A stretch of DNA of 36,793 bases, from positions 3,940 through 40,732 of the forward strand of contig PLLH01000098.1 of NCBI GenBank assembly GCA_003140895.1, given 5' to 3'. The notes under the pieces were generated by a model, which saw only the letters and a list, made by a program, of their open reading frames with translations, did no database searches and was not told where the DNA came from. This DNA comes from Elusimicrobiota bacterium. Its GTDB lineage: Bacteria; Elusimicrobiota; Elusimicrobia; F11. Position numbers and translations under genes: made by a program. Positions within the stretch are counted from its first letter, which is position 1, and the number at the start of each line of letters is the position of its first letter. Below are positions 9,594 through 32,469 of this stretch, in pieces.

Positions 9594-10705
9594 TTTTGTT
9601 CAAAAACCTCCTTTAAGGCTTGAAGAAACTTTTTGTTTTCTTCCGGCGTCCCGGCTGTGACGCGAAGATACTCCGGCAGTTCATATTCATCGACGGAACG
9701 CGTGATAATTCCCCTCCGGAGCATTCGTTCAAAGACCACATGGCCTGTCAACGGTTGCACGTTAAACAGCAGGAAATTGGCGGCGGAGGGAACGACGGAA
9801 AACCCCATTTTTGTTAGTTCTCCAGCGAGAACGTCTTTTTGCTCCTCGTTCATCTTAACCGATTTGTTGACGAAGTCGGAATCATAAAAGGCCGCTTCGG
9901 CCGCCACTTGAGCGGCGACGGAAATATTGAAGGGTTGGCGGATTTTATCCATGGCGCGCACCAGGGCCTCCGGCGCGATGCCGTACCCCACCCGGAGTCC
10001 CGCCAATCCGAAGACCTTGGAAAACGTGCGCAAGACCACCATCGGCCGTTTATTGAAAAATTCATCAATCATGGAGGGGTAATCTTTTTTGACCACGGCG
10101 TATTCGAAATAGGCTTCGTCAAAAACCGGAACGACCTGGGAAGGAAGCACGGATAGGAAATACTCCACTTCGCTCGTCGAGTTATACGTTCCCGTCGGAT
10201 TGTTGGGGTTCGCGATAAAAACAAACTTGGTTGTTTTCGTGGCGGCCGCGGCCATGGCCTTCAAGTCGTGTTTCATGCCTTTCATGGGGACGGTGATGAC
10301 GTTGGTCCCCATGAGATCGGCGGCCAGGCGGTATTGCATGAAGGCCGAGGCCGAAACAACGATGTCATCCTTGGGCGTTAAAAACGTCTTGGCCAGAAGC
10401 TCGATGATTTCATCGGATCCGGCGCCGATAATGACTTGTTCCAGATCCAGGCTGAAACCGCTCGAGATCATTCGCCTTAAATCGATGCTTCGGGATTCCG
10501 GATAGCGGAATATCCCCTCCGCCGCTTTCTTGTACGCCGCCACGGCCTTCGGCGAGGGGCCCAACGGGTTTTCGTTGGACGCCAGCTTAATGACTTTTGT
10601 CAGGCTGTAGCGCCTCTTGATTTCCTCAATGGAAAGCCCGGGAATGTATTCCTTGTATTTCTGCAGTTCCGGACGAACCGATATCGGGGGCTGAAGTTTA
10701 TTCAT
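9590..10705 (-). CDS. hisC: Histidinol-phosphate aminotransferase family (probable aromatic aminotransferase)
   Basis: This is a 371-residue fold type I PLP aminotransferase. Motifs include [14 protein letters not shown] near the N-terminus, [19 protein letters not shown] (165-175), DEAYFEY, and the PLP lysine Lys230 in [17 protein letters not shown]. The length is normal for HisC. No other histidine gene is visible. The gene lies between pheA and aroF, so in vivo it probably transaminates phenylpyruvate and 4-hydroxyphenylpyruvate, a side role known for HisC-type enzymes. Whether it also serves histidine synthesis depends on whether a second hisC exists elsewhere. The ATG start lies 41 bp after pheA. 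Confidence 0.9.
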
Positions 10706-10746
10706 GATGTCTGTTTGTTATGCCTTTATGAGGGCCAGGGAATCGA

Positions 10747-11823
10747 TTAATTGATAAACGGATAGGACCCGAGAATTTTCAGGCGCGTGCAGTTCTTCTG
10801 TAATTCCGCCAGCGCTTTTTGAACTCGTTTCTCAGAATGATGGCCAATGAAATCCACAAAGAAAATATATTCCCATGCTTTCCGTTTGGTGGGGCGGGAC
10901 TCGATTTTCGTGAGGTTAAGCCCCGCTTTTCGAAACGGTTTCAGCATTTCATAGAGCGCGCCCACCCGGTCTTTGACCGAGAAAAGAATCGACGTCTTGT
11001 CGTGGCCGCTGGGCGGCGTGACCGCGCGGCCGATGATGAGAAACCGTGTCATGTTGTCCGCCGAATCCTCAATTTTCGTTGCGATGGCCTTCAAATTATA
11101 AAGTTTTCCAGCCAATGCGGATGCGATGGCGGCAACTGATGGGTCCAGCGTTGCTCGGATAGAGGCGTCGGCCGTCGAAGCGGCTTCATGAATGGCGACC
11201 CCGGGCAAATGCGTGTCCAGCCACTCCCGGCATTGCGCCAGAGGTTGCGGGTGTGAATACACCGATTTCACGCTTTTTAAGTTCCCGGAGGATGAAAAGA
11301 GGTTTTCGGTAATCGGTTCTTCTCGCTCCGCCACAATCACGAGTTCCGAATTCACGAACATGTCCAGCGTGTGATTCACGATGCCTTCGGTTGAATTTTC
11401 AACCGGGACGACACCATAGTCCGCCCGTTTCATTTCCACTTCGCGGAACACATCTTTGATCGATGGAACCGGCGTGTAACCGCAATTGGTCCCGAAGTGT
11501 TTCAGCGCCAATTGATGGGTGAAGGTCGCTTCGGGTCCGAAAAAAGCGACTTGGAAATGTTTCTGAAGAGAGCGGCAGGAGGTTAAAATGGACTGAAAGA
11601 TGTCTTCAACCGCGTCCGGTGACAACGGTCCACGGCTTTCCTCTGTCAGCCTTTCCAGGATTTCCCTCTCCCGCGCGGAGGAGAAAATATCGTCGCCGTT
11701 TTTTTCTTTTATTTTCCCAATCTCAACGGCGATGGCCGCCCTCTTGTTTAAGAGCGCCAGCAACTCCGAATCAATCGAGTCGATGGTTTTTCTTTTATTG
11801 CCCAGCGGAGATGAATTTTTCAT
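10747..11823 (-). CDS. pheA: Bifunctional chorismate mutase / prephenate dehydratase (P-protein)
   Basis: The 358-residue protein converts chorismate to prephenate and then to phenylpyruvate. Residues about 10-85 are an AroQ chorismate mutase domain (IDSIDSELLALLNKRAAIA). Residues about 91-268 are the dehydratase, with FFGPEATFTHQLA, VVPVENSTEGIVNHT and the TRF catalytic motif at 259-261 in DNMTRFLIIG. An ACT regulatory domain follows (about 276-350), with DRVGALYEMLKPF and ESRP (308-311), the motif linked to phenylalanine feedback. All domains look intact. It leads the aromatic block, 66 bp after the DUF3108 gene, with no leader peptide or T-box visible in that gap. Confidence 0.96.
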   Translation of the reverse strand: MKNSSPLGNKRKTIDSIDSELLALLNKRAAIAVEIGKIKEKNGDDIFSSAREREILERLTEESRGPLSPDAVEDIFQSILTSCRSLQKHFQVAFFGPEATFTHQLALKHFGTNCGYTPVPSIKDVFREVEMKRADYGVVPVENSTEGIVNHTLDMFVNSELVIVAEREEPITENLFSSSGNLKSVKSVYSHPQPLAQCREWLDTHLPGVAIHEAASTADASIRATLDPSVAAIASALAGKLYNLKAIATKIEDSADNMTRFLIIGRAVTPPSGHDKTSILFSVKDRVGALYEMLKPFRKAGLNLTKIESRPTKRKAWEYIFFVDFIGHHSEKRVQKALAELQKNCTRLKILGSYPFIN

Positions 11824-11889
11824 AGGGGGATGATTCTATCCTATTTGTTTGCGCCGTGGAAAGACAAGGAAAAGATGAATGGGGGCGAA

Positions 11890-12711
11890 TTATTTCGGAG
11901 AATAACGCGTCAATTCCGCGTCAAATGCCCCGATGGCGGCCTTCGAACGGATCAAAACAGGCATTTTACGGGCGTCGTTGGTCATCCAAATCGTCATTTT
12001 TCCTTTGGACGCCTGGAAAATCGTATCCCCCACAACAATGGGAGTCACTTTCAGACATTCAAATTTCCCCGCCTTCACGCGGATCGTCTCGATTTGCGGA
12101 TCCACTTTGACGTCCAGCGGATAAAGTTCTCCGTCGGAAAAAACGGGAAATTCATAGTCTCCTCCCGGGATGAGCGCAAGCGTTCGAGTCAGGTAGAAGG
12201 CCGACAGAATGTCATGGACCGGTTGCGTGATGGGGCCGGCGGAGGTTTGGGTTTGTCCTTTGTAATACCGGGTGAACTCGTATTTGCCGGCGTCATATTG
12301 GATTGTTGTATTTCGAATGACTTTGTAGTGCCCCTCATGCAGGTTTTGATGGAAGGTGATGGAGGCCAACGAGTCCCGGTCTGTCATGGAGCCGTTGATG
12401 TCTCGAACCGGGAAAAACACGTCGATAAAACTGTTGGATTTGGCGGTGGAGAGAATGTTGAACGTCCGCCGGCCCATGACGAGGGACCCTTCTTGCACTT
12501 CCAGCGTCGCTTCTCCGGCATCGATAAATTGGTAATGGATATTAAATTCCAGCTTTTCTCCCACCTCAAAGGCTTTGTTCTCCGCCCGGGGAAGGTGGAT
12601 CGGCTTCGTTGTCGATGAAAGGACAAGCGCGGCGGCGTCTTCGGCCTGCCCCGGGTTTGATAGCAGAAGGAGGATGGCTGATAACAAGATGGATCGACAC
12701 AGGTCTTTCAT
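11890..12711 (-). CDS. DUF3108 domain protein, exported
   Basis: The 273-residue protein has an N-terminal signal peptide (about residues 1-23, hydrophobic LLSAILLLLSN). A region typical of DUF3108 follows: FEVGEKLEFNIHYQFIDAGE, then VRDINGSMTDRD and a later PVFSDGELYPLDVKV and KCLKVTP-like strand. The family is predicted to be periplasmic and beta-rich, and is of unknown function. The ATG has AAGGGG about 6 nt upstream. It follows the GT39-LmeA-like gene by 10 bp, and both carry extracytoplasmic domains that may bind lipid or glycan. That link is inference. Confidence 0.82.
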   Translation of the reverse strand: MKDLCRSILLSAILLLLSNPGQAEDAAALVLSSTTKPIHLPRAENKAFEVGEKLEFNIHYQFIDAGEATLEVQEGSLVMGRRTFNILSTAKSNSFIDVFFPVRDINGSMTDRDSLASITFHQNLHEGHYKVIRNTTIQYDAGKYEFTRYYKGQTQTSAGPITQPVHDILSAFYLTRTLALIPGGDYEFPVFSDGELYPLDVKVDPQIETIRVKAGKFECLKVTPIVVGDTIFQASKGKMTIWMTNDARKMPVLIRSKAAIGAFDAELTRYSPK

Positions 12712-12721
12712 ACGTTACCCC

Positions 12722-14842
12722 TTACTCAATAACGAGCGTTTTTCCTTTTCCTTGGATGGAGTGAATGTCCAAATAAAATGGGATTTCATCGTTCGGCGTC
12801 AACGCGACAGTTCGGTTGGTGACGCTTTGGAGAAGGAACGACGGGAGTGGGATTCCCGCGACCGTTAGAGAGTCCAACCGAGTGTGCAACGCATCGCCTT
12901 GAACCCAAACGGAGGCTTGAAGCGTGAGGGGCACGCCCGACGCTTTCGTTTTGAGTTTGATTTTTTCCTTTTCAAAGTCCACCTCTGTTTCTCTCAGGAA
13001 CTTGGCTTTTTTCGCGATGTACGCGAGAAGAGTGTCGGCGTTTAAGGTGACGCGGGGTTGGAGCCGCGCCAATCCGATCAATTGGATTTCCTGGCTCTCC
13101 AGAAAGAGCGGGACATTCAGTTGTGGTTGGATGAAGCGGAGGGAGACGTTTTCAATCGTGAAATCTTTATACGAGAGCGAGGCGCAGGCGAAGTCCAATT
13201 CCTTGAGCCGGCCCACGGCGGTTTGCGCGGGCGAAAGGGGAACGGCTTTGAAAGACACTTTTTGGGCCACCACGTTGGGCATTTGAAACTCTCCCAATTC
13301 CAGGTTGAAGAGGCCGTCGAACGGGATATTTTGCGGTTTGGGCGAGGCGTGCAGAAGAAGGCCCTGCGACCCGTCTGGTAACGGCCATCGCCCCGCCTCC
13401 TGATACACGTTTCGAAACCAATCGGGCGGGTTCGAAACGAAATCGACGCAATTTTTGACGGTGCCGATCGTAAAGTCAGGCCCCAGATCACCGGTTTTGA
13501 TCAGAATGAATTCGTAGAGCTCCAGCCATCTTTTCTTGGCCGGTCCTCGGAACGAGACGCCTTTGACGCCCAGAGACCGGGCGGTCATCTCCAACGAATT
13601 GTTGTGGAAAAAGGGCGTGTTCGACAGAAGCAGAACCCGGGCGAAGGGCGTTTGCGGGTCTTTGAGTTCCCGGATTTTGTCCAGAATCGCTTTGTGTTGC
13701 CAATCCGCTTTAACCGGTTCGCGGGACGAGAGGATGGGGACAGGGACGGGACCTAAGTTGAATCCGGCATGAACCGCCGGAAAAAAATGGAAGGTCACAA
13801 AGAAAAGAGCCGCGATGATATTGACGATGATCAGCGGAATTTTTCGGAAGGGCGGCAACCACGCGACGCTGAGAAGAGCGGCGGCCGGCAAAACCGGCAT
13901 CGTGTAGCGCGTGTTTTTGTTGTTAAGGAACGTGAAGAAAATCATCGGGACGACAAACCAAAGAAAAAGGGACCAAAATTTAGGCTTCCAGAAAAACACC
14001 AAAAGACCGGGAATCAATAGAAGGAAAAACGGAAGATACAGTTGATCAAAGAGCCCGGCCCAATACCACAGCCAATTCCAGGCTCCCAAATTCATTCCCC
14101 CCGCCGGCGGCAAGCTGCTGTTCAAGAGTATCCGTTTCATGAACACAATGAGATTGATGGAATACCACGGCAACATGAGGAGGCCGGCAAGCGCCATGGA
14201 AAGAGCGATGGACTTGAATCTCTTTTCCGAGAGTCCATGCCACAGGCTGAGGACGAGCGGCCCCAGGAGGTAAAAAACACCCGTCCATTTGATGAGCATG
14301 CCGAGCCCCACGGAAACCCCAAAGAGGAGCGACCAGAAGACGTTTTCAAAATGTTCGGATTTGACCAGGCACAGATATCCCAGGGCGACGAAGGCCGTCA
14401 AGGCCAGATCCGTCATGGGAAAACGGGCGATATCGGCGATAATGGGATAACAGGAAATGAGAAAGGCGGCGGTGAGCGCGTGCTCGGGCTCCAAGAAATG
14501 CGTTCCGATAAAATACACGCAGACCATCAGCAAAACCAAATAGAAAAAGTTGACGAAGGCCCCCACATCCGCCAGATTTTTAACGACGTTCATGCCCAAC
14601 GCCAACGTGAGATGATAGATCGGCGGGTAGTTGAAGGTGGCGGGTTTAAGAAGCACCATCCAGTCGTGGCGAGCGAGCCCGTCATGAATATCGCAGGCCA
14701 CGCTCATGTGAATGGACTCGTCCCACGAAAGAGGTTGGGCGTCTTGATGCATCCAACGCCAGAGGACAAACCCATTCAGCGCGATAAGAAAAAACAAAAC
14801 AACTGATTTCCGTGAGAACAGTCGCATGACGATGTCGTTCAT
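12722..14842 (-). CDS. GT39-type membrane glycosyltransferase fused to an LmeA/DUF2993-like domain
   Basis: This is a 706-residue protein. Residues 1 to about 410 contain roughly ten to twelve transmembrane helices and the GT39/ArnT-type first loop with an acidic pair (SWDESIHM). KNTRYTMPVLPAAALLSVAW near the last helices also fits the family, which moves sugars from polyprenyl-phosphate carriers to lipids or proteins at the periplasmic face. After a mixed soluble domain, residues 512-706 form a separate beta-rich unit (FNLELGEFQMPNVVAQKVSF, DFACASLSYKDFTIENVSL, DSLTVAGIPLPSFL) that resembles DUF2993 (LmeA) lipid-binding proteins. I do not recall this fusion as common. It is flanked by gmhB (17 bp) and the DUF3108 gene (10 bp). 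The GT39 call is good; the LmeA-like call is moderate. Confidence 0.78.
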   Translation of the reverse strand: MNDIVMRLFSRKSVVLFFLIALNGFVLWRWMHQDAQPLSWDESIHMSVACDIHDGLARHDWMVLLKPATFNYPPIYHLTLALGMNVVKNLADVGAFVNFFYLVLLMVCVYFIGTHFLEPEHALTAAFLISCYPIIADIARFPMTDLALTAFVALGYLCLVKSEHFENVFWSLLFGVSVGLGMLIKWTGVFYLLGPLVLSLWHGLSEKRFKSIALSMALAGLLMLPWYSINLIVFMKRILLNSSLPPAGGMNLGAWNWLWYWAGLFDQLYLPFFLLLIPGLLVFFWKPKFWSLFLWFVVPMIFFTFLNNKNTRYTMPVLPAAALLSVAWLPPFRKIPLIIVNIIAALFFVTFHFFPAVHAGFNLGPVPVPILSSREPVKADWQHKAILDKIRELKDPQTPFARVLLLSNTPFFHNNSLEMTARSLGVKGVSFRGPAKKRWLELYEFILIKTGDLGPDFTIGTVKNCVDFVSNPPDWFRNVYQEAGRWPLPDGSQGLLLHASPKPQNIPFDGLFNLELGEFQMPNVVAQKVSFKAVPLSPAQTAVGRLKELDFACASLSYKDFTIENVSLRFIQPQLNVPLFLESQEIQLIGLARLQPRVTLNADTLLAYIAKKAKFLRETEVDFEKEKIKLKTKASGVPLTLQASVWVQGDALHTRLDSLTVAGIPLPSFLLQSVTNRTVALTPNDEIPFYLDIHSIQGKGKTLVIE

Positions 14843-14859
14843 AAGAGCGGGCGGTCCTT

Positions 14860-15417
14860 TTAGGGGCGTTGGGCGTCAGCCACAATCCAGCGGCCGGCTG
14901 TCATCAAATTCGTCGCCACTTTCGTCGAATGTTTCGCCGCCTCGCGTCTAGCGGATCGCCCGAAACCGGTGAGCACCAAAATGCCTTTGACGCGAACGTT
15001 TTGGGCCAATTGAATGTCCCGTGTTTGATCGCCGATCAGGTACGAAGACGAGAGGTCGATGTTGAGATCGCGCTTCGCCTTCTGAATCATTCCGGGGCGC
15101 GGTTTCCGGCAGGCGCATCCGGCGTTCGGTACATGAGGGCAATAGTAAATCCGGTCGATACGCACTCCCTTTTTTCGTAAAGAAAGCCGCAACGCGTCAT
15201 GAACCCGTTTGAGTTGTGTTTCAGAGAAATAACCTCGGCCGATGCCGGACTGATTCGTGATGATAACCAGTTTGTATCCGTTCTTTTGCAGCAGACGCAA
15301 CGCCGGGAAAACGCTCTTATAGAAATGGAAATTTTTCGGACGCGATAGATACCCTCGCTCTCGCAAGAGGGTTCCATCTCGATCAAGAAAAACCGCTTTA
15401 GTTTTTGATTTTTTCAT
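14860..15417 (-). CDS. gmhB: D-glycero-D-manno-heptose 1,7-bisphosphate 7-phosphatase (GmhB-like HAD)
   Basis: The enzyme removes the 7-phosphate from heptose bisphosphate in ADP-heptose synthesis for LPS core. The 185-residue protein opens with the HAD motif FLDRDGTLL (Asp12, Asp14). It has VIITNQSGIGRGY (motif II) and the zinc-binding loop CPHVPNAGCACRKPRPG, which separates this group from other HADs, then YLIGDQTRDI. The ATG at 15417 is chosen over a GTG at 15420; AAGG sits about 8 nt upstream. It overlaps the upstream ligase-like gene by 20 bp. The related histidinol-phosphatase group is an alternative, but the envelope neighbours favour heptose. Confidence 0.86.
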   Translation of the reverse strand: MKKSKTKAVFLDRDGTLLRERGYLSRPKNFHFYKSVFPALRLLQKNGYKLVIITNQSGIGRGYFSETQLKRVHDALRLSLRKKGVRIDRIYYCPHVPNAGCACRKPRPGMIQKAKRDLNIDLSSSYLIGDQTRDIQLAQNVRVKGILVLTGFGRSARREAAKHSTKVATNLMTAGRWIVADAQRP

Positions 15418-16657
15418 CACGATTGCCTTGTCTCCTCAGATGTTCCGCCGCTCCCAACAGGGCCCAAAATATCATGGCGACTTCTTTATCTCCAATCCAC
15501 GATTCGGTGAGTCCGGCCACCATGAAAGCGGCAAAGGACGCGAGGAGCGCGGTGCGCCACGGTTTGGGAGTTCGAAGGATTGTTCCCAACGCCACGATCA
15601 ATATCCATAGGAACAGCCCCAGTCCCACCAGGCCTCGGTCCAGCGCCACTTGAAGAAAAGAATTGTGTGTTTCCGACCATGTTTTCCCGACCGCCTCCGG
15701 CGGGGTGGAGACTCGAAGTTCCACCTCTTTTAATCCGTTTCCGAAAAGTGGTTTCTGTTTGATTTCTTGAAGAGCGGCCTTCCATAGCGAAAAACGCGTG
15801 GCGCTGGATTGTTGATCGGCGGCCGAGCCGGAAGTCATGGAAAAGATGCTCTGGGCGCGTGTTCGTATTTGAGGCGACGCGAACCATAAAAGCGATCCGA
15901 ACAGGATCAACCCCACCAGCCCTACGTATTTAAGCTTCTTTGGAAGCAAAAGAGAATTGATCACGAGACCAAGCCCAACGCCCAGCCACACGCCCCGAGA
16001 TTGAGAAAAGAGGATTCCCAGAAGAAGGGTGGCCAGCCCCCCCCCTCCAGCCACAACGATTTTCCAGGAGGATTTGTTTCGTTGGAGGTGCATGAAGAGA
16101 AGCCATGTTAAGAGGATAAACAGGGCCGGAATAAAACATTCGGCGTACGTGAGGGGATGGCTTCGTGACCCCACCGCTCGCCCATTCCGCAACGAAAAAA
16201 AGTGAACCAACCGGAGAGGCCATGCCTGCATATACGCTGGGATATCGAAGGTCCGGGGCGTCGGCTGGAAATTGGCTTGTGAGAAAAACTGAAGGATTCC
16301 AATGAACCCGACGAAAACAGACGCGAAAATAAACCATCTCGTGATGGACGTTAATTCGTCGGCCTCAATTCCTTGTGAGAAGAGGAAGAACAAGAGAAAG
16401 GCGTCGTGGCCGCTGTAGATTTCTCGCGGATTGGAAAATCCGTTGGAGGCGCAGGCCACAATCCCCCACAGGATGTAGAAAAGAATGGGAAGGTTGAGCG
16501 GTGACGGTGTCCACCGTTCGCCCTTCGGCTTGTGAAAAATTCGATTCATCCAAAGAAAAAATAAGAGGGCGATGGCAAAATAAGAAGCGGAAATCGACAC
16601 AACAAGCGTGATGCCAACGAGAGCGAAAATGATTTGTCGAGTTCGAGGTTGGTTCAT
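15398..16657 (-). CDS. O-antigen ligase / polymerase family membrane protein
   Basis: The 419-residue protein has about ten to twelve transmembrane helices and a large periplasmic loop between residues about 125 and 180. It matches the Wzy_C/WaaL family plan, with RSHPLTYAECFIPAL, then SRGVWLGVGLGLVINSLLL, and TWSETHNSFLQVALDRGLVG holding the conserved His-containing loop. WaaL joins O-antigen to the lipid A core; Wzy polymerises repeat units, and sequence alone does not separate the two. The start is taken at ATG 16657, which overlaps the lpxL stop by 4 bp. A longer frame from 16753 would read through the lpxL tail repeats and is rejected. The lpxK-lpxL-gmhB context favours a ligase role. 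Confidence 0.78.
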   Translation of the reverse strand: MNQPRTRQIIFALVGITLVVSISASYFAIALLFFLWMNRIFHKPKGERWTPSPLNLPILFYILWGIVACASNGFSNPREIYSGHDAFLLFFLFSQGIEADELTSITRWFIFASVFVGFIGILQFFSQANFQPTPRTFDIPAYMQAWPLRLVHFFSLRNGRAVGSRSHPLTYAECFIPALFILLTWLLFMHLQRNKSSWKIVVAGGGGLATLLLGILFSQSRGVWLGVGLGLVINSLLLPKKLKYVGLVGLILFGSLLWFASPQIRTRAQSIFSMTSGSAADQQSSATRFSLWKAALQEIKQKPLFGNGLKEVELRVSTPPEAVGKTWSETHNSFLQVALDRGLVGLGLFLWILIVALGTILRTPKPWRTALLASFAAFMVAGLTESWIGDKEVAMIFWALLGAAEHLRRQGNRDEKIKN

Positions 16658-17613
16658 GCCTTGTCCTCGTTGGCGGCAGGCGCGGCCGGTCCCGGCGAGG
16701 CCGATCCCGGCGAGGCCGGTTCCGGCGTGGCTGGTTCGGGCTTTCGCTTCCACCGGTTATGAATCCAAAACCAATTCTCCGGAGTCCGGCGAACCACGGC
16801 TTCAATGGAATTGTTGATTAGTTGAGTATGGGTAAAAATTCGTTGATCCATATCGGCAATCTCCGGCAATGGAATGGGTTCATAGACGATTTTGAATTTG
16901 GTCCCCTCACGAAGGGAATAGATTAGAACCACCGGCGCGTCCGTCCGCGAATGAAGGAGAGCCGGTAAGGTGGTGGTCGCGGCGGGACGGCCGAAGAAAT
17001 TGACGAACACTCCTCCCGTGTAGAGATTTTGATCCACCAGAATTCCCAGATTTTTTCCATTTTTTAATACTCGGAGGCTTGCTTTGGCGGCTTGGCGATG
17101 CCAGATCATGTTGGTGGTGTTGACGGATCGTTTGGATTGCACCCACGCTTCCACCAAGGGGTTTTTCATCGGACGCGCGATCCCGAACGTTTCGCCGAAA
17201 TATCGACCCGTGCAAATGCTTAACACTTCCCAGTTCGTGAAATGAAAGCCGATCAGAATACTGCCTTTCCCTAAAGCCAAGAGTTTGTCGAATTGTTCTT
17301 TTCCTTCAATAAAGAAAAATTCATCAAAGCGGTCGCCGGTGGTTTCAGAGAGGCGAACGAATTCAACGGCCGTCCTCCCTAAGTTTCTCCAAACCCCTTT
17401 GGCGATGTGTTCGATTTCGGCGTTCGATTTTTCGGGAAAGGCGGCGGCCAGATTGGCCTTGATGAGTTTATTGCGAGGCCTGAGTATCCACGAGATCAGC
17501 GTCCCCAGCGCTTCCCCGAAGGCGAGCGTGGCCGGACGCGGGAACAGGAACAACAGGAAATCCGCCGTTTTGACGAATCCATATTCAATCCGATGTTTGA
17601 GCGTCGGGGTCAT
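16654..17613 (-). CDS. lpxL: Lipid A late acyltransferase (LpxL/HtrB family)
   Basis: This family adds a secondary acyl chain to the lipid A precursor at the inner membrane. The 319-residue protein has a hydrophobic N-terminal helix (residues about 14-45), the catalytic HX4E motif in HFTNWE (His124, Glu129), GILVDQNLYTGGVFVNFFG, and a late WFWIHNRWKRKP. Residues 292-319 form an Ala/Pro tail encoded by 15-bp tandem repeats and absent from typical LpxL. The start at ATG 17613 overlaps the lpxK stop (ATGA). The 17652 alternative would add 13 residues inside lpxK. LpxL, LpxM and LpxP cannot be separated by sequence here. Confidence 0.9.
   Translation of the reverse strand: MTPTLKHRIEYGFVKTADFLLFLFPRPATLAFGEALGTLISWILRPRNKLIKANLAAAFPEKSNAEIEHIAKGVWRNLGRTAVEFVRLSETTGDRFDEFFFIEGKEQFDKLLALGKGSILIGFHFTNWEVLSICTGRYFGETFGIARPMKNPLVEAWVQSKRSVNTTNMIWHRQAAKASLRVLKNGKNLGILVDQNLYTGGVFVNFFGRPAATTTLPALLHSRTDAPVVLIYSLREGTKFKIVYEPIPLPEIADMDQRIFTHTQLINNSIEAVVRRTPENWFWIHNRWKRKPEPATPEPASPGSASPGPAAPAANEDKA
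16679..16738. repeat. Tandem repeat, four 15-bp units, coding for the LpxL tail
   Basis: Four consecutive imperfect 15-bp units read on the plus strand as ggcgcggccggtccc, ggcgaggccgatccc, ggcgaggccggttcc and ggcgtggctggttcg. On the minus strand they encode five-residue steps of the PEPAT/PEPAS/PGSAS/PGPAA kind. The unit is a multiple of three, so copy-number change would keep the frame. The region lies just before the overlapping ATG of the O-antigen ligase-like gene. Confidence 0.85.
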
Positions 17614-24752: not shown

Positions 24753-24843
24753 AAAACCAACGTAATAAACGCCCGATCTGGTTTTTAATGTAATCAGGCT
24801 TCAAAAATGGCGATCCGATGATATGTGATTAATAGTGGGGACT

Positions 24844-25476
24844 ATGCGAAAAAGGAATACAGACAATACAGCCGGCGTAGTGAAAATCAAGAAGAAACGG
24901 AACCGGCAGGAAAGCCAAAAACGGATTTTATATGCCGGGCTTGAAGTTTTTTCGGAGGTTGGTTACGACGCTGCCACCACTAAAATGGTGGCCAACCGTG
25001 CGGGACTTAATGAGTCATTGTTACAGCGATATTTTGAGAGCAAAGCCGGTTTGCTTTGCGCCATTAACCGTCTTTGCGTTGAGGCGCTAAAGAACCAGAA
25101 ACCATATCCTCCACAGAAAACGCCCGAGGATGAGATTTATCAATTTCTAACGCGCAAGCTTAAGCATGAAAATCAAAACGTGGATTTCATCCGGGTTATT
25201 ATTTCCCGTTCCCTGGTGGATCCTGAATTGCGGAATGAAATCCACAAACAGATCGATTTTTCCATAGATTCATATCTCAAGGAACGTCTCCTATCTTTCA
25301 GGCATAGAGGCATGATCAAAAGCGGAGTGAACATTGACAGCCTTTTTCTCGCCATTTTGGCTTTTGGTTTTGCGGTCGGTATTATGGAACGTATTGTTTT
25401 TAAGACTAGCATGGAAGATTGTATGAAGCGATTTAAGACGTTTTCCCAGAACATAACCAAAGGCGTTTGTCCTTAG
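24844..25476 (+). CDS. TetR/AcrR-family transcriptional repressor
   Basis: The 210-residue protein has a basic N-terminal arm (KIKKKRNRQESQKRIL). A TetR helix-turn-helix follows at about 20-65: YAGLEVFSEVGYDAATTKMV, then ANRAGLNESLLQRYFESKAG. The C-terminal ligand and dimer domain is helical. The ATG at 24844 is preferred to a GTG at 24835. It is the first gene of the pump operon and almost certainly represses it through the palindrome at 24705-24726. The ligand is unknown; substrates of the pump are the usual inducers in such systems. Confidence 0.9.
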   Translation: MRKRNTDNTAGVVKIKKKRNRQESQKRILYAGLEVFSEVGYDAATTKMVANRAGLNESLLQRYFESKAGLLCAINRLCVEALKNQKPYPPQKTPEDEIYQFLTRKLKHENQNVDFIRVIISRSLVDPELRNEIHKQIDFSIDSYLKERLLSFRHRGMIKSGVNIDSLFLAILAFGFAVGIMERIVFKTSMEDCMKRFKTFSQNITKGVCP

Positions 25477-25530: not shown

Positions 25531-27021
25531 ATGACGATCAGAAATATTTTTTTGAAAGCCGTGGGAAACGGGGAATTTTTTCGAAAATATATAAACGACA
25601 TACTTCACCTTATAGAAGGTGCTTTTGCCCACTTTCTCATGGAGGTAAAAACGGAGTTTGCCTCAAATTATGACAAAAAACTTGCCGGGCGACGGTCGAC
25701 CATAATTTGTGTTGGAGCAAAATGCCTAAAAGTCTTGGCTGTGTCGTCGTTGTCGACGGTATTCATGCTTCGAGGGGTGATGGCCGCTCCATTGGAGATG
25801 AGCGTTAATGGCGCCGTGGAAGCCGCCCTTAAAAACAACACCACCGTTGTTACCGCACAAGCGACGAGCAAGATGTATAGGGCAAGGATAAAAGAATATT
25901 ATGGGAGCGTCTATCCGCAGTTGAGCGCCAACGCACAGTATACCCGCAACATAGAGAAGTCCGCGTCTTTTCTCGGAGATACGCAAGTCAAAGTGGGGCT
26001 TAACAATTCCTACGCCGGCTCGCTTGATCTCAACCAGGTGCTCTGGTCGGGTGGAAAAGTCCATGCGGGGATAAAGATGGCGTACACCTATTCCGCCGCC
26101 AGCGAAGAACAACTCAAAATGGCGCAGGACAGCATAACGAAATCGGTTAAACAGATGTATTATTCGGTACTGCTTTCCAGCGCGATGATCGGCATACAAA
26201 AGGAAACCCTCAATCTAGCCCGCCAACATCTCGACACTATAAAGGCACAGTATCAACAAGGATTGGCAAGTGACTTGGCGGTCATGAGACAAACCGTGGA
26301 AGTTTCAAACACCGAACCTGCCCTAACCCAGGCACAGAATCTCTATGAGGAAGGACTAATAGATCTTATAAATCTGATGGGCCTGGATCCGGAAACGGGA
26401 ATTAGTCTCAGCGACGACTTCGCCGTCCCGAACGATGGCGCTGGCGACTTAAATGATTTTTACAAGACCGCGCTCTCGTCAAGGCCGGAATACAGAAACA
26501 TGAAATACCAGAGGGATCTTTACCGGCAAATGATCGTAATCGAAAAAGCCGCGCACTACCCTTCGCTAAACGCCTTCGCTTCACGGCAGTTCCAAGGACA
26601 GAGCGATTCCGGTTTCCCCGGTAACAATAATCGAAATTGGAGCCTGGCGACTGGTTTAAATCTTTCCCTCCCTATTTTTTCCGGCGGCTCAACTGCTTCA
26701 CGGGTCAAACAAGCCGGCATCCAGGCTGAAATAGCCGAAACGAACCTTAATGAACTGGAACGGAAAATAAAAATTGAGGTCAAGAAAGCATGGCTGGTCT
26801 TGAAAGAAGCATCGGAAAGGCTTAGGTCTCAGACTACCGCTGTGGAAACCGCCAGAAAAACTCTGACCTCTACCGAGGTCCGCTTCAGAAATGGTTTGGC
26901 GAGCCAACTTGAGATCAACGACGTCTCTCTGGCCCTGAATAAATCCAGGACCTTATACATACAGGCGCAACATGACGCCTGTTCCGCTTATACCGAATTC
27001 AAATGGACATTGGGGGAATGA
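25531..27021 (+). CDS. TolC-family outer-membrane efflux protein
   Basis: This is the outer-membrane channel of a tripartite pump. The 496-residue protein shows two OEP repeats, for example YYGSVYPQLSANAQYTRNIE and AAHYPSLNAFASRQFQGQSD, with the SLPIFSGGSTASRVKQAGIQ and RFRNGLASQLEINDVSLALN motifs. A signal peptide-like stretch ends near residue 86 (VMAAP), preceded by about 60 unusual residues. The start at 25531 has AGGA 8 nt upstream; ATG 25639 is an in-frame alternative without a ribosome site. It lies 54 bp after tetR, and the adaptor gene follows at once. Confidence 0.9.
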   Translation: MTIRNIFLKAVGNGEFFRKYINDILHLIEGAFAHFLMEVKTEFASNYDKKLAGRRSTIICVGAKCLKVLAVSSLSTVFMLRGVMAAPLEMSVNGAVEAALKNNTTVVTAQATSKMYRARIKEYYGSVYPQLSANAQYTRNIEKSASFLGDTQVKVGLNNSYAGSLDLNQVLWSGGKVHAGIKMAYTYSAASEEQLKMAQDSITKSVKQMYYSVLLSSAMIGIQKETLNLARQHLDTIKAQYQQGLASDLAVMRQTVEVSNTEPALTQAQNLYEEGLIDLINLMGLDPETGISLSDDFAVPNDGAGDLNDFYKTALSSRPEYRNMKYQRDLYRQMIVIEKAAHYPSLNAFASRQFQGQSDSGFPGNNNRNWSLATGLNLSLPIFSGGSTASRVKQAGIQAEIAETNLNELERKIKIEVKKAWLVLKEASERLRSQTTAVETARKTLTSTEVRFRNGLASQLEINDVSLALNKSRTLYIQAQHDACSAYTEFKWTLGE

Positions 27022-27023
27022 TT

Positions 27024-27926
27024 ATGCATATGAAAAAAACATCCATTTATATATTTCTTATTTTTGCCGCCGCTGCGGTTGTAACCGTAACGTCCGGCTG
27101 CAGGAACAAAGAGTTGGAAGCCTTCAACAACCTTGAGAAGGACCGTTTCCAGGTCAAAATTGGAAAGGCCCAGGTAAAAGACATAGAGGACAACCTTATA
27201 CTCGTGGGCACGATCAAGGCTTTGGATGAAGCCACTCTTTATCCGAGGATTTCCGGCAAGCTTTTGAAAAACCTTCTCACAGAAGGCGCTTCCGTGAAAA
27301 AGGACCAAGCTGTGGCGCTGGTTGAACGCGATGAAGTGGGCACCGTCTTCGAGCCCGCTCCGGTTCCGTCCACTATTGACGGCGTCGTGGGCCATATCTA
27401 TCAGGACATCGGCTCAAATGTCACACCCCAAACCCCCATCGCTCTGGTGGTCAACCAGGGGCAGATCCGAGTGGCGGTGGATGTCCCGGAGCGATACGTA
27501 TCGAAAGTCTTTAGGAACCAGTCCGCTCACATAAAAGTGGATGCCTTCCCTGATAAGCTTTTCAGCGGCAAAGTGTATCGAGTCAGCCCTGTCATTGATA
27601 CAAAATCCCGTAGTGCCGACATGGAAATCTTTGTGGACAACACGAAAGGCCTTCTCCAATCGGGCATGTTCGCCGAAGTCAGGCTTATTGTCGGAGCGAA
27701 AGCGGGGGCTGTGGCCGTGCCGGCCGAGGCCGTGTTACGCGATGAAAAAGGCAGCAACTACATATTCGTTCCGGCCAATAACACAGCCGTCAGGCGGGAC
27801 GTGAAAACCGGCATCGGCAACGCCGATGATATCCAGATAACAGCCGGTCTGAACGCCGGGGAAGACGTTATAATATTCGGCCTTTACGGCCTAAAAGACG
27901 GCAGCAAAATAAAGGGCACTGAGTGA
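27024..27926 (+). CDS. RND efflux membrane-fusion (adaptor) lipoprotein, no alpha-hairpin
   Basis: The adaptor links the inner-membrane pump to the TolC channel. The 300-residue protein has a lipoprotein signal with lipobox VTSGC (Cys26). A first lipoyl half (EATLYPRISGKLLKNLLTEG) and a second (PSTIDGVVGHIYQDIG) follow, then beta-barrel (VAVDVPERYVSKVF) and membrane-proximal domains ending DGSKIKGTE. Only about ten residues separate the lipoyl halves, so the long coiled-coil hairpin of AcrA-type adaptors is missing, as reported for Borrelia BesA. ATG 27024 is chosen for its GGGGGA 6 nt upstream; other in-frame ATGs lie at 27003, 27018 and 27030. Heavy use of ATA Ile codons begins in this operon. 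Confidence 0.9.
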   Translation: MHMKKTSIYIFLIFAAAAVVTVTSGCRNKELEAFNNLEKDRFQVKIGKAQVKDIEDNLILVGTIKALDEATLYPRISGKLLKNLLTEGASVKKDQAVALVERDEVGTVFEPAPVPSTIDGVVGHIYQDIGSNVTPQTPIALVVNQGQIRVAVDVPERYVSKVFRNQSAHIKVDAFPDKLFSGKVYRVSPVIDTKSRSADMEIFVDNTKGLLQSGMFAEVRLIVGAKAGAVAVPAEAVLRDEKGSNYIFVPANNTAVRRDVKTGIGNADDIQITAGLNAGEDVIIFGLYGLKDGSKIKGTE

Positions 27927-27954: not shown

Positions 27955-30900
27955 ATGAAATTAACCGAAATCTCAATCAAGCGACCCATATTCACCACCA
28001 TGATGATGCTGGCCCTGGTGGTGCTCGGCGTGTTTTCCTATCTGCGCTTGGGCGTAGACCAGATGCCTAACGTGGAATTCCCTTACGTGGTGGTGCAAAC
28101 AACGCTGCGCGGCGCCGGCCCGGAAGAAATCGAATCTTCAATCACAAAGCCGATCGAAGAATCAGTTAACACCATCTCCGGCATAGAAGACTTGTCCTCC
28201 ACCAGCTACGAAGGTGTATCAAGCGTGCTGATTAAGTTTAAGCTTGAAAAGGACGGCGACGTGGCCGCGCAGGAAGTACGCGATAAGATAAACGCAGTGT
28301 TGGCCCAACTCCCGCAGGGCACCGATCAGCCCGTTGTATCCAAACTCGACATAGGCGCCATGGCCGTGGTAAACATTGTGGTTTCCGGTAATCGGGACTT
28401 GATAGAACTCACGCAATTCGCCAAGAAGAAGATAAAAGAAAACATTGAGACGGTCAGCGGCGTAGGCTCGGTCAATATTGTGGGCGGCCGCGAGCGCGAG
28501 ATCCACATAATGATAAACCCGATGAAGATGGCCTCGCTGAACCTGTCCATCAAACAGATCAAAGATGCCATCACGCAGCAAAACATAGAGATTCCAGGCG
28601 GTAAAGTTGAGTTGCCGACCAAAGACTTCGTACTGAGGACGCTGGGCCGCATAAAGAGCGTGGAGGACTTTAACTCTATCGTCATAGCCAACGTCAACGG
28701 CGCCCCGATACACATTTCCGATATAGCTAGGGTGGAGGACACCGGCGAACGTATGACGTCGGCCTCTTTCCTTAACGGCAAGCCTGCCGTAACGCTGGTC
28801 GTAAAAAAGCAATCCGGCAGCAACACGGTGGAAGTGGTAAAGGATATCCGCGCGAGAGTCCAGAAGATACAGTCCATAATTCCTCCGGGCATGGAAACCA
28901 AGATCGTCGGTGACCAGTCGGAATTCATAAAAGATTCGGTCAACACCGTGGAAGAGCACCTTATACTGGGCGCTCTATTCGCCGGTTTGATGGTGCTGAT
29001 ATTCATGGGCGACTTTCGATCCACCATCATCTCGGCGATGGCCATACCCACTTCAGTGATCGCCACGTTCATTTTCCTGGATTACGCCGGCTTCACGCTT
29101 AACACGATGACGCTGATGGGTCTGACGATAGCCGTGGGCATAGTCATCGATGATGCCATCGTCATGCTTGAAAACATATATCGCCACATGGAGGAGAGAA
29201 AAATCTCCCCGGTCAAGGCGGCTCTGGAGGGCTCGGCTGAAATATCATTCGCCGTCATAGCCATGTCTTTGTCTCTCATCGTCATTTTCGTGCCGCTGGC
29301 CTACATGGGCGGCATAATCGGCCGCTTCGTAAAAAGCTATGGTCTCACCATAGCCTTCGCCATTGCCATAAGCACTTTCGTGGCCCTGACACTGACCCCG
29401 ATGATGTGTGCGCTCTTTCTTAAAGTCAAAAGCAGCGAAAAGACGAAGTTCCAGAAATTCACCGACCACATAAACGACTCCTTGGCGTCGAAATACATCG
29501 TCATGCTTGAGTGGGCGCTGACCCATCGCAAGATAATGGTTATCTCTTCCATAGGCATAATGCTGTCCATGATCCCGCTGTTCATGTTCATCGGCAAGGA
29601 CTTCATGCCCACGGACGACACCGGCCAGTACCAGATAACGGTGAAAGCCGCGGAAGGGACCAACCTCGAAGTCATGAAAAAGATTTTTGCCCAGATAGAG
29701 GCAGAGAACAAGACCATCCCCTACGTTACCACCACGTTGTCCTCCGTAGGCACAGGCACCGGCGCGACACTTGGCGGTGCATCCGCCACTAACGAGGGCT
29801 ATGTAACGGTGGAGCTGGTGGACCTTTCAAAGCGCCCTCCACTTGAAAAGATCATGGCAACGGTGCGCGAGATGATGAACAAATACACGGGCCTGCGTAT
29901 TGCGGTGACCGCGGCCGGCGGTTTCGGCGGCGGCGAAAAGGCGCTGCAGTACGTGGTGGCGGGGCCGGACTTGGAAAAACTGCAGATCTACGCCGGGGCG
30001 GTGGCAGACCACTTGAAGACCCTCAAAAATGTGGTGGATGTTGACATGAGCTTCTCTTACGCCAAGCCGGAATACCGCGTGGAAATTGACCGCGCACGCT
30101 CCCACGATTTGGGCGTGAAGATTGAAGACATAGCCAACTCTCTGAGGACCATGGTGGGAGGCGAGGAGGACATAACCAAATTCAAGGATGGTGACGAGCT
30201 CTTCCAAGTGCGCGTGCGCGCCGAGAGCAATTACCGTAATCGGAAAGATATGATTGAGACGATGGTGGTGCCGGGCCTAGACGGCAATATGGTGCGCCTG
30301 GACAACGTGGCGAAAGTAGTGGAAGGCGTCGGCCCCACCCAGATAGAGCGCCTTAACCGTCAGCGCAAGATAACTGTGGAGGCCAATACCATTGGCATGC
30401 CTTTGGGCACCATGATAGAAGAAGCCGACAAGGCTTTCAAAAAGCTTAACGCCCCGGTGGAATACACGGGCTCGGCCACCGGCAGGTCAAAGGAACTCGG
30501 CAACATGTTGATGGGTTTCGTAACGGCCTTTCTTATGGCTTTCATCTTCATCTATATAGTGTTGGCCAGCCAGTTCGAAAGTTTCGTCTACCCCATAGCG
30601 ATCATAATAGCCCTTCCGCTCACACTGCCCTTCGCCGTCATCTCGTTGTTCTTGTCCGGCCAGAGTATAACGTTGTTCGGTATCATGGGCATCTTCATGC
30701 TGTTCGGCATAGTGAAGAAGAACGCCATCTTGCAGGTGGATTACACCAACACTCTGCGCGCGAAAGGCATGGCACGCCATGAGGCCTCCATTGAAGCCAA
30801 CCGGACCCGCTTGCGCCCCATTCTCATGACCACCATGACTCTGGTGGTCTGCATGATACCGACGGCCCTCGGCACGGGAGCCGGCACAGGCTCAAGGCGC

Positions 30901-31038
30901 GCTATGGCCTGGGTCATAATAGGCGGCCAGTCTTTGTCGCTATTAATAACCCTGCTGATGACGCCGGTCACCTACACGCTCTTCGACGACCTGCAAAACA
31001 AGTGGTTCCCAAAAAAGAACGAGACATCCTCAAAATGA
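27955..31038 (+). CDS. RND multidrug efflux permease (AcrB/HAE1 family)
   Basis: This is an inner-membrane proton-driven pump of 1027 residues, the usual length. The N-terminus ISIKRPIFTTMMMLALVVLG is typical. The proton-relay aspartates Asp399 and Asp400 are in GIVIDDAIVMLENIYRHM. The relay lysine Lys922 is in LFGIVKKNAILQVDYTNTLR. A late TMTLVVCMIPTALGTGAGTG and RRAMAWVIIGG fit TM11-12. Two periplasmic porter/docking regions lie between TM1-2 and TM7-8. All core motifs are intact, so it should be active. The gene starts 28 bp after the adaptor. Substrates cannot be predicted; the TetR gene suggests induction by a toxic small molecule. Confidence 0.95.
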   Translation: MKLTEISIKRPIFTTMMMLALVVLGVFSYLRLGVDQMPNVEFPYVVVQTTLRGAGPEEIESSITKPIEESVNTISGIEDLSSTSYEGVSSVLIKFKLEKDGDVAAQEVRDKINAVLAQLPQGTDQPVVSKLDIGAMAVVNIVVSGNRDLIELTQFAKKKIKENIETVSGVGSVNIVGGREREIHIMINPMKMASLNLSIKQIKDAITQQNIEIPGGKVELPTKDFVLRTLGRIKSVEDFNSIVIANVNGAPIHISDIARVEDTGERMTSASFLNGKPAVTLVVKKQSGSNTVEVVKDIRARVQKIQSIIPPGMETKIVGDQSEFIKDSVNTVEEHLILGALFAGLMVLIFMGDFRSTIISAMAIPTSVIATFIFLDYAGFTLNTMTLMGLTIAVGIVIDDAIVMLENIYRHMEERKISPVKAALEGSAEISFAVIAMSLSLIVIFVPLAYMGGIIGRFVKSYGLTIAFAIAISTFVALTLTPMMCALFLKVKSSEKTKFQKFTDHINDSLASKYIVMLEWALTHRKIMVISSIGIMLSMIPLFMFIGKDFMPTDDTGQYQITVKAAEGTNLEVMKKIFAQIEAENKTIPYVTTTLSSVGTGTGATLGGASATNEGYVTVELVDLSKRPPLEKIMATVREMMNKYTGLRIAVTAAGGFGGGEKALQYVVAGPDLEKLQIYAGAVADHLKTLKNVVDVDMSFSYAKPEYRVEIDRARSHDLGVKIEDIANSLRTMVGGEEDITKFKDGDELFQVRVRAESNYRNRKDMIETMVVPGLDGNMVRLDNVAKVVEGVGPTQIERLNRQRKITVEANTIGMPLGTMIEEADKAFKKLNAPVEYTGSATGRSKELGNMLMGFVTAFLMAFIFIYIVLASQFESFVYPIAIIIALPLTLPFAVISLFLSGQSITLFGIMGIFMLFGIVKKNAILQVDYTNTLRAKGMARHEASIEANRTRLRPILMTTMTLVVCMIPTALGTGAGTGSRRAMAWVIIGGQSLSLLITLLMTPVTYTLFDDLQNKWFPKKNETSSK

Positions 31039-31047
31039 GAAGAGCTC

Positions 31048-32469
31048 ATGCCAACAAAAACGACTGATGATCTCTCTTTCTTCAACACCAATGTTTTCCA
31101 TATAAGATATTTCGCTTTTGGCTTTTTCATTATTGCGAGTGCCCTGAGCCTTCGGGCAGCGGAGCGGGATCCGGAAGGAGAGATCATCAAACGTGTTCAA
31201 ATCACGGGAAATCGCGTTGAGACCGGCATTCTTGAGAGGAAAATCACCCTGTTGGAGGGACGACCATTCCGTTCCGTGGATCTTGAGGAGACACGGCAGA
31301 ATCTCTTTGCGATGCGACTCTTTAAGTCCGTGGACGTTCATGCCGCCTACGATGAGACGCTCGGCGGGGTGGATGTCTCCATCAACTTGGTAGACGGTTG
31401 GTATGTGTTTCCTCTCCCTGTTTTGGTCGGTGGTGGCGGCGGACAGAGTATGTCATTAATGGTTTTGGAGAGGAATTATTTTAGAAAAGCCGAATCGCTT
31501 CATGTTTTCGGTTCTCTCAATAATGAAGGGTATTTGGCTAGGGTTGGCGGGAACCTCAACGATTTTGGCTGTGGAGTCGGTATGAACCGCAGCGAATTTA
31601 CCGAGCGCATATATTCAGACGGGGGGTTCAATACGGCAGGGCTCGGACGTTCATCTGAATATGAAAAAGATCCTCTTCGGTTCGGGCCCATTGCCAATTC
31701 CTACACCAAAGAGGTTCGAAGAGCGGAAGTGAATGTGGATATTCCCGTTGGGAAGAAACTTCGAACTTCTTTATCTGTCGAAACAAACCAAGTTTCTTAC
31801 GCTGCTCCCCTTAACTTCCTCCCTTCAGACGCGGGTCAGCAGAACCTGGTTTCAGCCGGATTGTCCTACGGGAATCGTATGGGGCAAGGCGGTCCTGAAA
31901 ATTTCATGGATGCATTTGGCGCCATTTTCGGACTAGGTCTCGCAGATGTCGGGGAAAGGATTAAGTCTCTGCCGAAACCGCAATTCGGGTGGAATTCCCG
32001 TTTTTCCATGTCCCAAGGGACAAGGATTCTCGGTTCTGATTACTCGTTCACTCTGCTTTCGTCCGGATTGTCGGGGCGATTAGAGTTTCCACGAAGGCAC
32101 AGTTTATCCTTGGGTATCAATGCAAATCGTGGATTCAACCTTCCCATTACACAACAGGTCGCTACGAACCGGCGTTCACTGGGACTGCGGGGCAATTATG
32201 CCCGCGAGTTTCGCGGTGATGCGGGGGTGGGCGCAACTATGTCTTTTTCGTATTTAATGAAAAAGACCAAACGCGGCCTTTGGGTGGGAGAAGTATTCGC
32301 TGAAAAAGCGTCCGTCTGGGATGATGGTCGATGTTTCAGCCAGACCGGCTTGGGCGGGAACCTATATTATCGCTTCTGGCGTTTTCCGTTGCCCCTAGGT
32401 TTTGGCTACACCTACAGCACAAAGGACAGGGACGAACAACTATCGTTTGCAATCGGAGGGATGTTCTAA
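31048..32469 (+). CDS. Omp85/BamA-like outer-membrane beta-barrel protein with one POTRA domain
   Basis: This 473-residue protein has a signal-like N-terminus (FAFGFFIIASALSLRA, about 26-42). One POTRA-like domain (about 46-122) follows: EIIKRVQITGNRVETGILER, GRPFRSVDLEETRQNLFAMR, LFKSVDVHAAYDETLGGVDV. The rest has alternating strands and ends at a C-terminal Phe after SFAIGGMF, the outer-membrane assembly signal. Single-POTRA Omp85 proteins are short relatives of BamA and TamA. The gene begins 9 bp after the RND gene and is probably co-transcribed. Its codon use looks more like the rest of the window than like the pump genes. An insertion or secretion role is likely; the link to the pump is unproven. 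Confidence 0.78.
   Translation: MPTKTTDDLSFFNTNVFHIRYFAFGFFIIASALSLRAAERDPEGEIIKRVQITGNRVETGILERKITLLEGRPFRSVDLEETRQNLFAMRLFKSVDVHAAYDETLGGVDVSINLVDGWYVFPLPVLVGGGGGQSMSLMVLERNYFRKAESLHVFGSLNNEGYLARVGGNLNDFGCGVGMNRSEFTERIYSDGGFNTAGLGRSSEYEKDPLRFGPIANSYTKEVRRAEVNVDIPVGKKLRTSLSVETNQVSYAAPLNFLPSDAGQQNLVSAGLSYGNRMGQGGPENFMDAFGAIFGLGLADVGERIKSLPKPQFGWNSRFSMSQGTRILGSDYSFTLLSSGLSGRLEFPRRHSLSLGINANRGFNLPITQQVATNRRSLGLRGNYAREFRGDAGVGATMSFSYLMKKTKRGLWVGEVFAEKASVWDDGRCFSQTGLGGNLYYRFWRFPLPLGFGYTYSTKDRDEQLSFAIGGMF

What the first reader, a model, noticed from the sequence alone, without database searches (positions are those of the whole stretch)
27024..27926. RND adaptor with no coiled-coil hairpin
Only about ten residues separate the two lipoyl half-motifs, so the hairpin that normally touches TolC is absent, although a complete TolC and RND permease are present. 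Borrelia BesA is a known precedent. How the adaptor seals to TolC here is open; the lipid anchor and the Omp85-like protein could compensate.
Basis: partly seen in the sequence, partly recalled or inferred. Interest (0 to 1): 0.5.

Follow-up and report, generated by a model that had tools for sequence, protein, structure and literature searches.

The report
Hairpinless BesA-type efflux pump adaptor
This bacterium has a drug-pump adaptor that lacks the coiled arm usually used to grip the outer-membrane channel; the same short-armed pump is common across its phylum and resembles one known from the Lyme disease bacterium, so it is a new, well-conserved example of a known oddity.

Summary
The 300-aa adaptor at 27024-27926 (+) is an RND adaptor whose two lipoyl halves are joined by nine residues (103-111). 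It aligns end to end, without a gap, with crystallised Borrelia BesA. An AlphaFold2 model (pLDDT 89.7) has no helical hairpin anywhere, and BesA is its nearest fold. It sits in a TolC-adaptor-RND operon with the gene order of besCAB.

It is not a one-off: at E <= 1e-65, 142 of 340 genomes of the phylum (probably Elusimicrobiota) carry it.

New here: the nine-residue loop lies in the most conserved stretch of the adaptor, and the two TolC tips are the most conserved stretches of TolC. Neither the TolC barrel nor the RND docking domain is lengthened. Unlike BesC, the partner TolC keeps both aspartate-ring positions acidic (24 of 24), which argues against the published idea that the hairpin became dispensable because the channel had lost that ring.

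Most likely TolC docks directly on the RND funnel, with the lipoyl loop as contact; this is inferred. The Omp85-like neighbour (2 of 26 loci) and the lipid anchor (20 of 25) are not conserved enough to be the general answer. New member of a known kind.

The parts
24835..25476 (+). TetR-type regulator, probably the local regulator of the operon
   Evidence: Pfam TetR_N 1.7e-12; a homologue lies by the operon in 7 of 26 loci, window included
25531..27021 (+). TolC-family outer membrane channel (OMF) gene
   Evidence: Pfam OEP 4.9e-58; AF2 model pLDDT 86.4, Foldseek best matches TolC and OprM class
26251..26298 (+). TolC periplasmic tip H3/H4 (ORF residues 241-256), the most conserved stretch of the partner TolC
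26881..26922 (+). TolC periplasmic tip H7/H8 (ORF residues 451-464) with the aspartate-ring positions E461 and D464
27024..27926 (+). hairpinless periplasmic adaptor gene (300 aa, BesA-type)
27330..27356 (+). nine-residue loop (residues 103-111) in place of the alpha-hairpin; the conserved stretch is residues 100-117 (27321-27374)
   Evidence: AF2 secondary structure; lowest-entropy 14-residue window of the protein is 103-116
27955..31038 (+). RND permease (AcrB/MdtB class)
   Evidence: Pfam ACR_tran 8.4e-269; best solved relative MdtB; docking-domain lengths ordinary

Best explanation
A complete tripartite RND efflux pump whose adaptor is of the hairpinless BesA kind. The adaptor is exported and anchored in the inner membrane; its barrel and membrane-proximal domains would clamp the RND trimer, and its lipoyl domains would form a ring around the RND funnel. 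With no hairpin, TolC must come down onto the RND funnel, so that its tips meet the RND docking domain and the short conserved lipoyl loop (R-D-E-V-G-x-x-F/Y-E-P-x-x-V-P-S-T); the pump is correspondingly shorter. Shown: architecture, operon, fold, phylum-wide conservation, unlengthened TolC and RND, conserved loop and tips. Inferred: the direct docking, the loop-tip contact, and the export function itself (substrates unknown).
For: Full-length BesA match and fold. No hairpin in the model. TolC-adaptor-RND order in 25 of 26 loci; in the other, L106, the contig ends just beyond the adaptor. Family in 142 of 340 genomes of the phylum at E <= 1e-65. The loop stretch is the most conserved 14-residue window of 25 adaptors (mean entropy 0.53 against 1.37 bits for residues 45-297), also after thinning to 15 sequences below 60% identity. 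The partner TolC's most conserved windows are its two tips; in a control TolC family from a hairpin-type operon (30 sequences) the same tip windows rank 125th and 54th of 380. TolC barrel helices are as long as E. coli TolC's within one residue. RND docking subdomains are 83 aa (24 of 24) and 88-92 aa (23 of 24, the other cut by a contig end), against 83/88 in MdtB and MdtC. Borrelia BesABC is functional by mutant phenotype and its authors propose the same direct docking.
Against: No complex was modelled; no interface is shown. Charge complementarity, proposed for BesA/BesC, is not supported: the loop is acidic in 24 of 24, but the tips are no more basic than in 36 other OMFs (p 0.95), and the signs oppose in only 13 of 24 pairs. 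The loop could be conserved for lipoyl folding or adaptor-adaptor packing rather than TolC contact. More distant hairpinless members keep only RDE-x4-Y of the motif. The control family is of the metal-efflux type, so it is not a perfect match, and stretches beside its tips rank first there.
Confidence: 0.6

Rival explanations
1. The hairpin became dispensable because the partner channel has weak gates and opens unaided (the published explanation for BesA/BesC); the adaptor then only braces the RND trimer.
For: In the 24 partner TolCs the primary lock is weakened: the R367 position is never R or K, and the D153 position is acidic in 9 of 24 against 28 of 33 other OMFs; the window's TolC has A, F and A at D153, Y362 and R367. 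The C-terminal equatorial extension is missing, as reported for BesC.
Against: Both aspartate-ring positions (E. coli D371 and D374) are acidic in 24 of 24 partner TolCs, against 10 of 33 other OMFs, and also in the Treponema and L112 partners; BesC was argued to need no hairpin because it lacks this ring. The R367 position is basic in only 3 of 33 others, so that loss is not diagnostic. Counts are not corrected for kinship.
Confidence: 0.2
2. Another protein supplies the missing bridge: the Omp85-like neighbour, or a hairpin adaptor of another operon used in mixed hexamers.
For: The genome holds several other adaptors, some with hairpins, and an Omp85-like gene follows the RND gene.
Against: An Omp85-like homologue is near only 2 of 26 operons. 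Each hairpinless adaptor has its own TolC and RND in the same operon wherever the contig reaches, and the loop itself is strongly conserved. Mixed hexamers were not tested.
Confidence: 0.1
3. The adaptor and RND work as a two-part inner-membrane pump that drops substrate in the periplasm, with no sealed link to TolC.
For: No contact between adaptor and TolC is shown; hairpinless adaptors also occur in metal-efflux systems.
Against: TolC lies directly upstream of the adaptor in 25 of 26 loci and its tips are under the strongest constraint.
Confidence: 0.1

Closest known systems
BesA of Borrelia burgdorferi BesABC (PDB 4KKS, 4KKT, 4KKU)
   Same: Nine-residue loop in place of the hairpin; same three domains; operon order channel-adaptor-RND; top sequence and fold match
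   Different: 26% identical in the structural alignment. Loop acidic (D103, E104) instead of net basic; partner TolC keeps the aspartate ring that BesC lacks. The RND of the Treponema relative does not group with these RNDs; BesB itself was not available
Treponema saccharophilum plasmid pTS1 adaptor (WP_002702331.1)
   Same: Hairpinless, in a TolC-adaptor-RND operon; groups with BesA and this family in the adaptor tree (96/84)
   Different: RND and TolC tips differ; loop is DPSKPGSEF-type
IhpB-type metal-efflux adaptors (NF045680), with Solimonas and Legionella fallonii relatives
   Same: No hairpin either: they match collinearly
   Different: Another branch: the Legionella adaptor and its RND group with metal-efflux members in the trees, so hairpin absence probably arose more than once
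AcrA/MexA/MdtA adaptors
   Same: Lipoyl, barrel and membrane-proximal domains
   Different: Carry the alpha-hairpin (AcrA and MdtA have 84 residues where this family has 18)

Membership tests
RND periplasmic adaptor (TIGR01730) | Score above the curated cut-off | tested here: met
   171.2 bits against 94.9
RND periplasmic adaptor (TIGR01730) | Encoded beside an RND permease and TolC-family channel | tested here: met
Four-domain (AcrA/MexA-type) adaptor | Alpha-helical coiled-coil hairpin between the lipoyl halves | tested here: not met
   Nine-residue loop in the model; 18 against 36-200 residues in the alignment
BesA-type hairpinless adaptor | Lipoyl halves joined by a loop of about nine residues | tested here: met
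   Loop 103-111; BesA loop Pro106-Leu114 in the paper
BesA-type hairpinless adaptor | Lipoyl, barrel and membrane-proximal domains in BesA's fold | tested here: met
   8 best Foldseek rows are BesA chains; Z 21.0, rmsd 3.2, 252 aligned, against 18.4 for the next entry
BesA-type hairpinless adaptor | One clade with BesA, apart from hairpin adaptors | tested here: inconclusive
   Grouped 96/84 with loop columns left out, but an alternative is not rejected (p-AU 0.15) and the RND tree disagrees for Treponema
BesABC-type pump | Channel without the aspartate ring | tested here: not met
   Ring positions acidic in 24 of 24 partner TolCs; BesC's lack of it from PMC4338810 and PMC2279261
BesABC-type pump | Channel ends with the last barrel helix, no C-terminal equatorial extension | tested here: met
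   3 residues from ORF residue 494 on in the window TolC, 68 in E. coli TolC; BesC
BesABC-type pump | Drug efflux in the living cell | not testable with these tools
   needs mutants or transport assays

The most novel reading that the evidence does not exclude
A phylum-wide class of tripartite pumps in which a short, nearly invariant lipoyl-tip loop has replaced the coiled-coil hairpin as the element that recognises and opens TolC, on channels that still carry a full aspartate ring: a compact direct-docking pump that opens a gated channel without any hairpin.
Probability: 0.35. Interest if true: 0.65.

Novelty: new member of a known kind. Interest (0 to 1): 0.42.

Why it matters
How TolC is opened and sealed is a central question of drug efflux, and current tip-to-tip models give the job to the adaptor hairpin. 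A 2015 review calls hairpinless BesA perhaps the biggest challenge for that model, but BesA-like adaptors were reported from spirochaetes and rarely from proteobacteria such as Legionella, the BesC channel was unusual, and its partners were hard to express. Here is a large family, in many genomes, whose channels look ordinary in length and keep their aspartate ring. That gives many orthologues to try for structure work and makes the question testable: is the hairpin needed to open a ring-bearing TolC?

Tried and rejected
Omp85-like neighbour as a fourth part: rejected, 2 of 26 loci.

Lengthened RND docking domain or TolC barrel as compensation: rejected. The AcrB docking-domain limits used (182-271, 725-812) are recalled.

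Charge complementarity between loop and tips: not supported.

TolC tip signature GL-x-S-[DN]-L as a general mark of hairpinless pumps: not met in the Treponema or Legionella partners.

One origin of all hairpinless adaptors: Legionella groups with metal-efflux adaptors and Nostoc on a long branch; AU tests do not settle it, and holding Legionella in the family is also not rejected, p 0.153.

In-frame TGA in control TolC rows: in 4 of the 5 loci looked at, the stops lie at the very end of the match, i.e. the terminal stop; the fifth, L162, was read in a wrong frame and is uninformative. The first attempt to read the f19 adaptors found nothing because of a faulty pattern; one search repeated it.

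Rows left out: in the adaptor tree, near copies and other loci (17 locus keys named in the script) and ORFs outside 280-680 aa; in the entropy counts, L112. The structure alignment A2 has 24 TolCs: L102 of the counting set left out and L112 added.

Distribution beyond the phylum was sampled poorly: one genome-contig scan, 20 genomes behind those loci, and plasmids. In one search four rows spanning the loop were checked. Two Solimonas adaptors are hairpinless and of metal-efflux type, one Chlorobiaceae adaptor carries a short insert, and one Chloroflexota adaptor has a normal one.

Full report
OBSERVATION. The open frame at 27024-27926 (+) gives 300 aa. A longer start at 27003 exists, but 27024 lies just after the TolC stop. 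It is an RND adaptor by NCBIfam (171.2 bits, cut-off 94.9) and Pfam. Its best solved relative is BesA, aligned in one piece over residues 41-296 (86.8 bits), or 150.3 bits with a family profile against 118.5 for the next chain. AlphaFold2, with an alignment of 26 sequences, gives pLDDT 89.7. Strands 96-102 and 112-115 are joined by loop 103-111, and no helix pair exists anywhere. The eight best Foldseek rows are BesA chains; VIA-align gives Z 21.0, 20.9 and 20.7 for the three BesA entries and 18.4 for the next entry. BesA itself has a nine-residue loop, Pro106-Leu114 (PMC3807786, parts 1 and 2 of 4 read).

SURROUNDINGS. Upstream are a TetR-type regulator and a TolC-family channel; downstream are an RND permease of the AcrB/MdtB class and an Omp85-like protein with one POTRA. 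I fetched 25 further loci holding full-length relatives. The order TolC-adaptor-RND is seen in 25 of 26; in the other (L106) the contig ends just beyond the adaptor. A TetR homologue is found in 7 of 26 and an Omp85-like homologue in 2 of 26 (phmmer E <= 1e-4; three contigs end inside the RND gene). The order is that of besC-besA-besB.

THE SAME GENOME AS A CONTROL. The assembly has a second hairpinless adaptor in its own TolC-adaptor-RND operon (C113) and several further adaptors. Those counted have 36-84 residues where the family has 18. So both kinds live in one cell, and the missing hairpin is not a general feature of the organism.

DISTRIBUTION. At E <= 1e-65, 142 of 340 genomes of the phylum match (43 of 100 genera; 91 of 191 good assemblies). 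The listed rows are single segments, and by eye their DNA span is about three times the matched profile span, which leaves no room for a hairpin. At this limit 198 genomes have no such match. Members below the limit exist: 5 of 5 genomes of family f19 have one at 1e-57 to 1e-61. The phylum is not named by the tools. One relative (G051) is a single contig of 1,643,562 bases, which is the size I recall for Elusimicrobium minutum Pei191; a paper search did not confirm that number. I therefore take the phylum to be Elusimicrobiota, on recall. Outside it, full-length hairpinless relatives were seen on plasmids of Treponema saccharophilum and Legionella fallonii, in line with the groups named by Greene et al.. 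Two Solimonas adaptors also lack the hairpin; one of them and the Legionella one, both scanned, match the metal-efflux model IhpB collinearly.

HISTORY. With the loop columns left out, a tree of 68 adaptors puts the 26 relatives, BesA and the Treponema adaptor together (96/84), while Legionella falls with metal-efflux adaptors (98/90). This is not firm: a rival grouping is not rejected (p-AU 0.15), BesA is a long branch, and in the RND tree the 24 family RNDs form one clade while the Treponema RND lies elsewhere. Either adaptors changed partners or the adaptor grouping is partly wrong. Hairpin absence in the metal-efflux branch is probably separate.

THE LOOP. Among 25 aligned adaptors, the 14-residue window with the lowest entropy, of those starting at residue 45 or later, is 103-116 (0.53 against a mean of 1.37 bits for residues 45-297); D103, E104, G106, P111, V114 and S116 are invariant. 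After thinning to 15 sequences below 60% identity the same window still wins. In BesA the loop is flexible in the crystals. A flexible surface loop that is the most conserved part of a protein suggests a binding surface. More distant members keep R-D-E-x4-Y/F only: two f19 sequences were read in the alignments, and L112.

THE CHANNEL. The window's TolC folds as a TolC protomer (pLDDT 86.4). In 24 partner TolCs the most conserved windows are the two periplasmic tips. In a control family of 30 TolCs from a hairpin-type operon of the same class, which is less divergent overall (mean 1.30 against 1.77 bits), the corresponding tip windows rank only 125th and 54th of 380; stretches just beside the tips rank first there, so the contrast is one of degree. 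The barrel helices equal those of E. coli TolC within one residue, and the C-terminal extension is absent, as reported for BesC (PMC2279261, passages). The primary lock of E. coli TolC is not kept: A, F and A stand at D153, Y362 and R367 in the window. Over the family, D153 is acidic in 9 of 24 against 28 of 33 other OMFs, and R367 is never basic, but is basic in only 3 of 33 others. The aspartate ring is kept: both positions are acidic in 24 of 24 against 10 of 33, and also in the Treponema and L112 partners. Fisher values in that call ignore kinship and should not be taken at face value.

WHAT THIS SAYS ABOUT MECHANISM. Nothing in the pump is lengthened to fill the gap left by the hairpin. 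The simplest reading is that TolC docks directly on the RND funnel, as Bunikis et al. and Greene et al. proposed for BesABC, with the lipoyl loop adding contacts. The loop-tip contact is my inference from conservation alone. Charge pairing, suggested for Borrelia, is not borne out here. The idea that the hairpin could be dropped because the channel lacks its aspartate ring (PMC4338810, passage) does not fit this family, whose channels keep the ring.

KNOWN OR NEW. The kind is known: BesA. In the papers I could search, I found no description of such pumps in Elusimicrobiota (searches, where listings and abstract starts were read; passages of one 2026 review searched, which does not name BesA). 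Most subscription papers are not in that library. New here are the phylum-wide family, the conserved loop, the tip contrast and the retained ring. I file it as a new member of a known kind.

Noticed in passing
window 31048-32469 (+): Omp85-like protein with a single detected POTRA (473 aa) directly after the RND gene; a homologue lies about 2 kb beyond the RND gene in a same-family genome (L095) and near none of the other 24 operons.
   Followed up: partly
L127 (own genome C12), 9454-12601 (+): An RND permease gene split into two overlapping frames (613 and 442 aa), beside an intact one at 13495-16800: a broken gene or an assembly error.
   Followed up: no
L091-L094 and L109: In one family (small 1.3-1.7 Mb genomes) the hairpinless adaptor of these five loci has no lipobox cysteine but keeps a hydrophobic N-terminus, so the lipid anchor seems replaced by a transmembrane helix.
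   Followed up: partly
L188, 3635-4642 and 13386-14795 (+): Two adaptors without a hairpin, one of them His-rich, next to RND genes in Solimonas fluminis; the first one matches the IhpB model (the second was not scanned): a second, metal-efflux lineage of hairpinless adaptors.
   Followed up: partly
L139, 3627-9034 (+): Treponema saccharophilum plasmid pTS1 carries a complete hairpinless TolC-adaptor-RND operon on a 424 kb plasmid.
   Followed up: partly
L112 (G023:C86): A more divergent hairpinless operon in a genome that also has a standard family member; of the loop motif it keeps RDE and the aromatic residue.
   Followed up: partly
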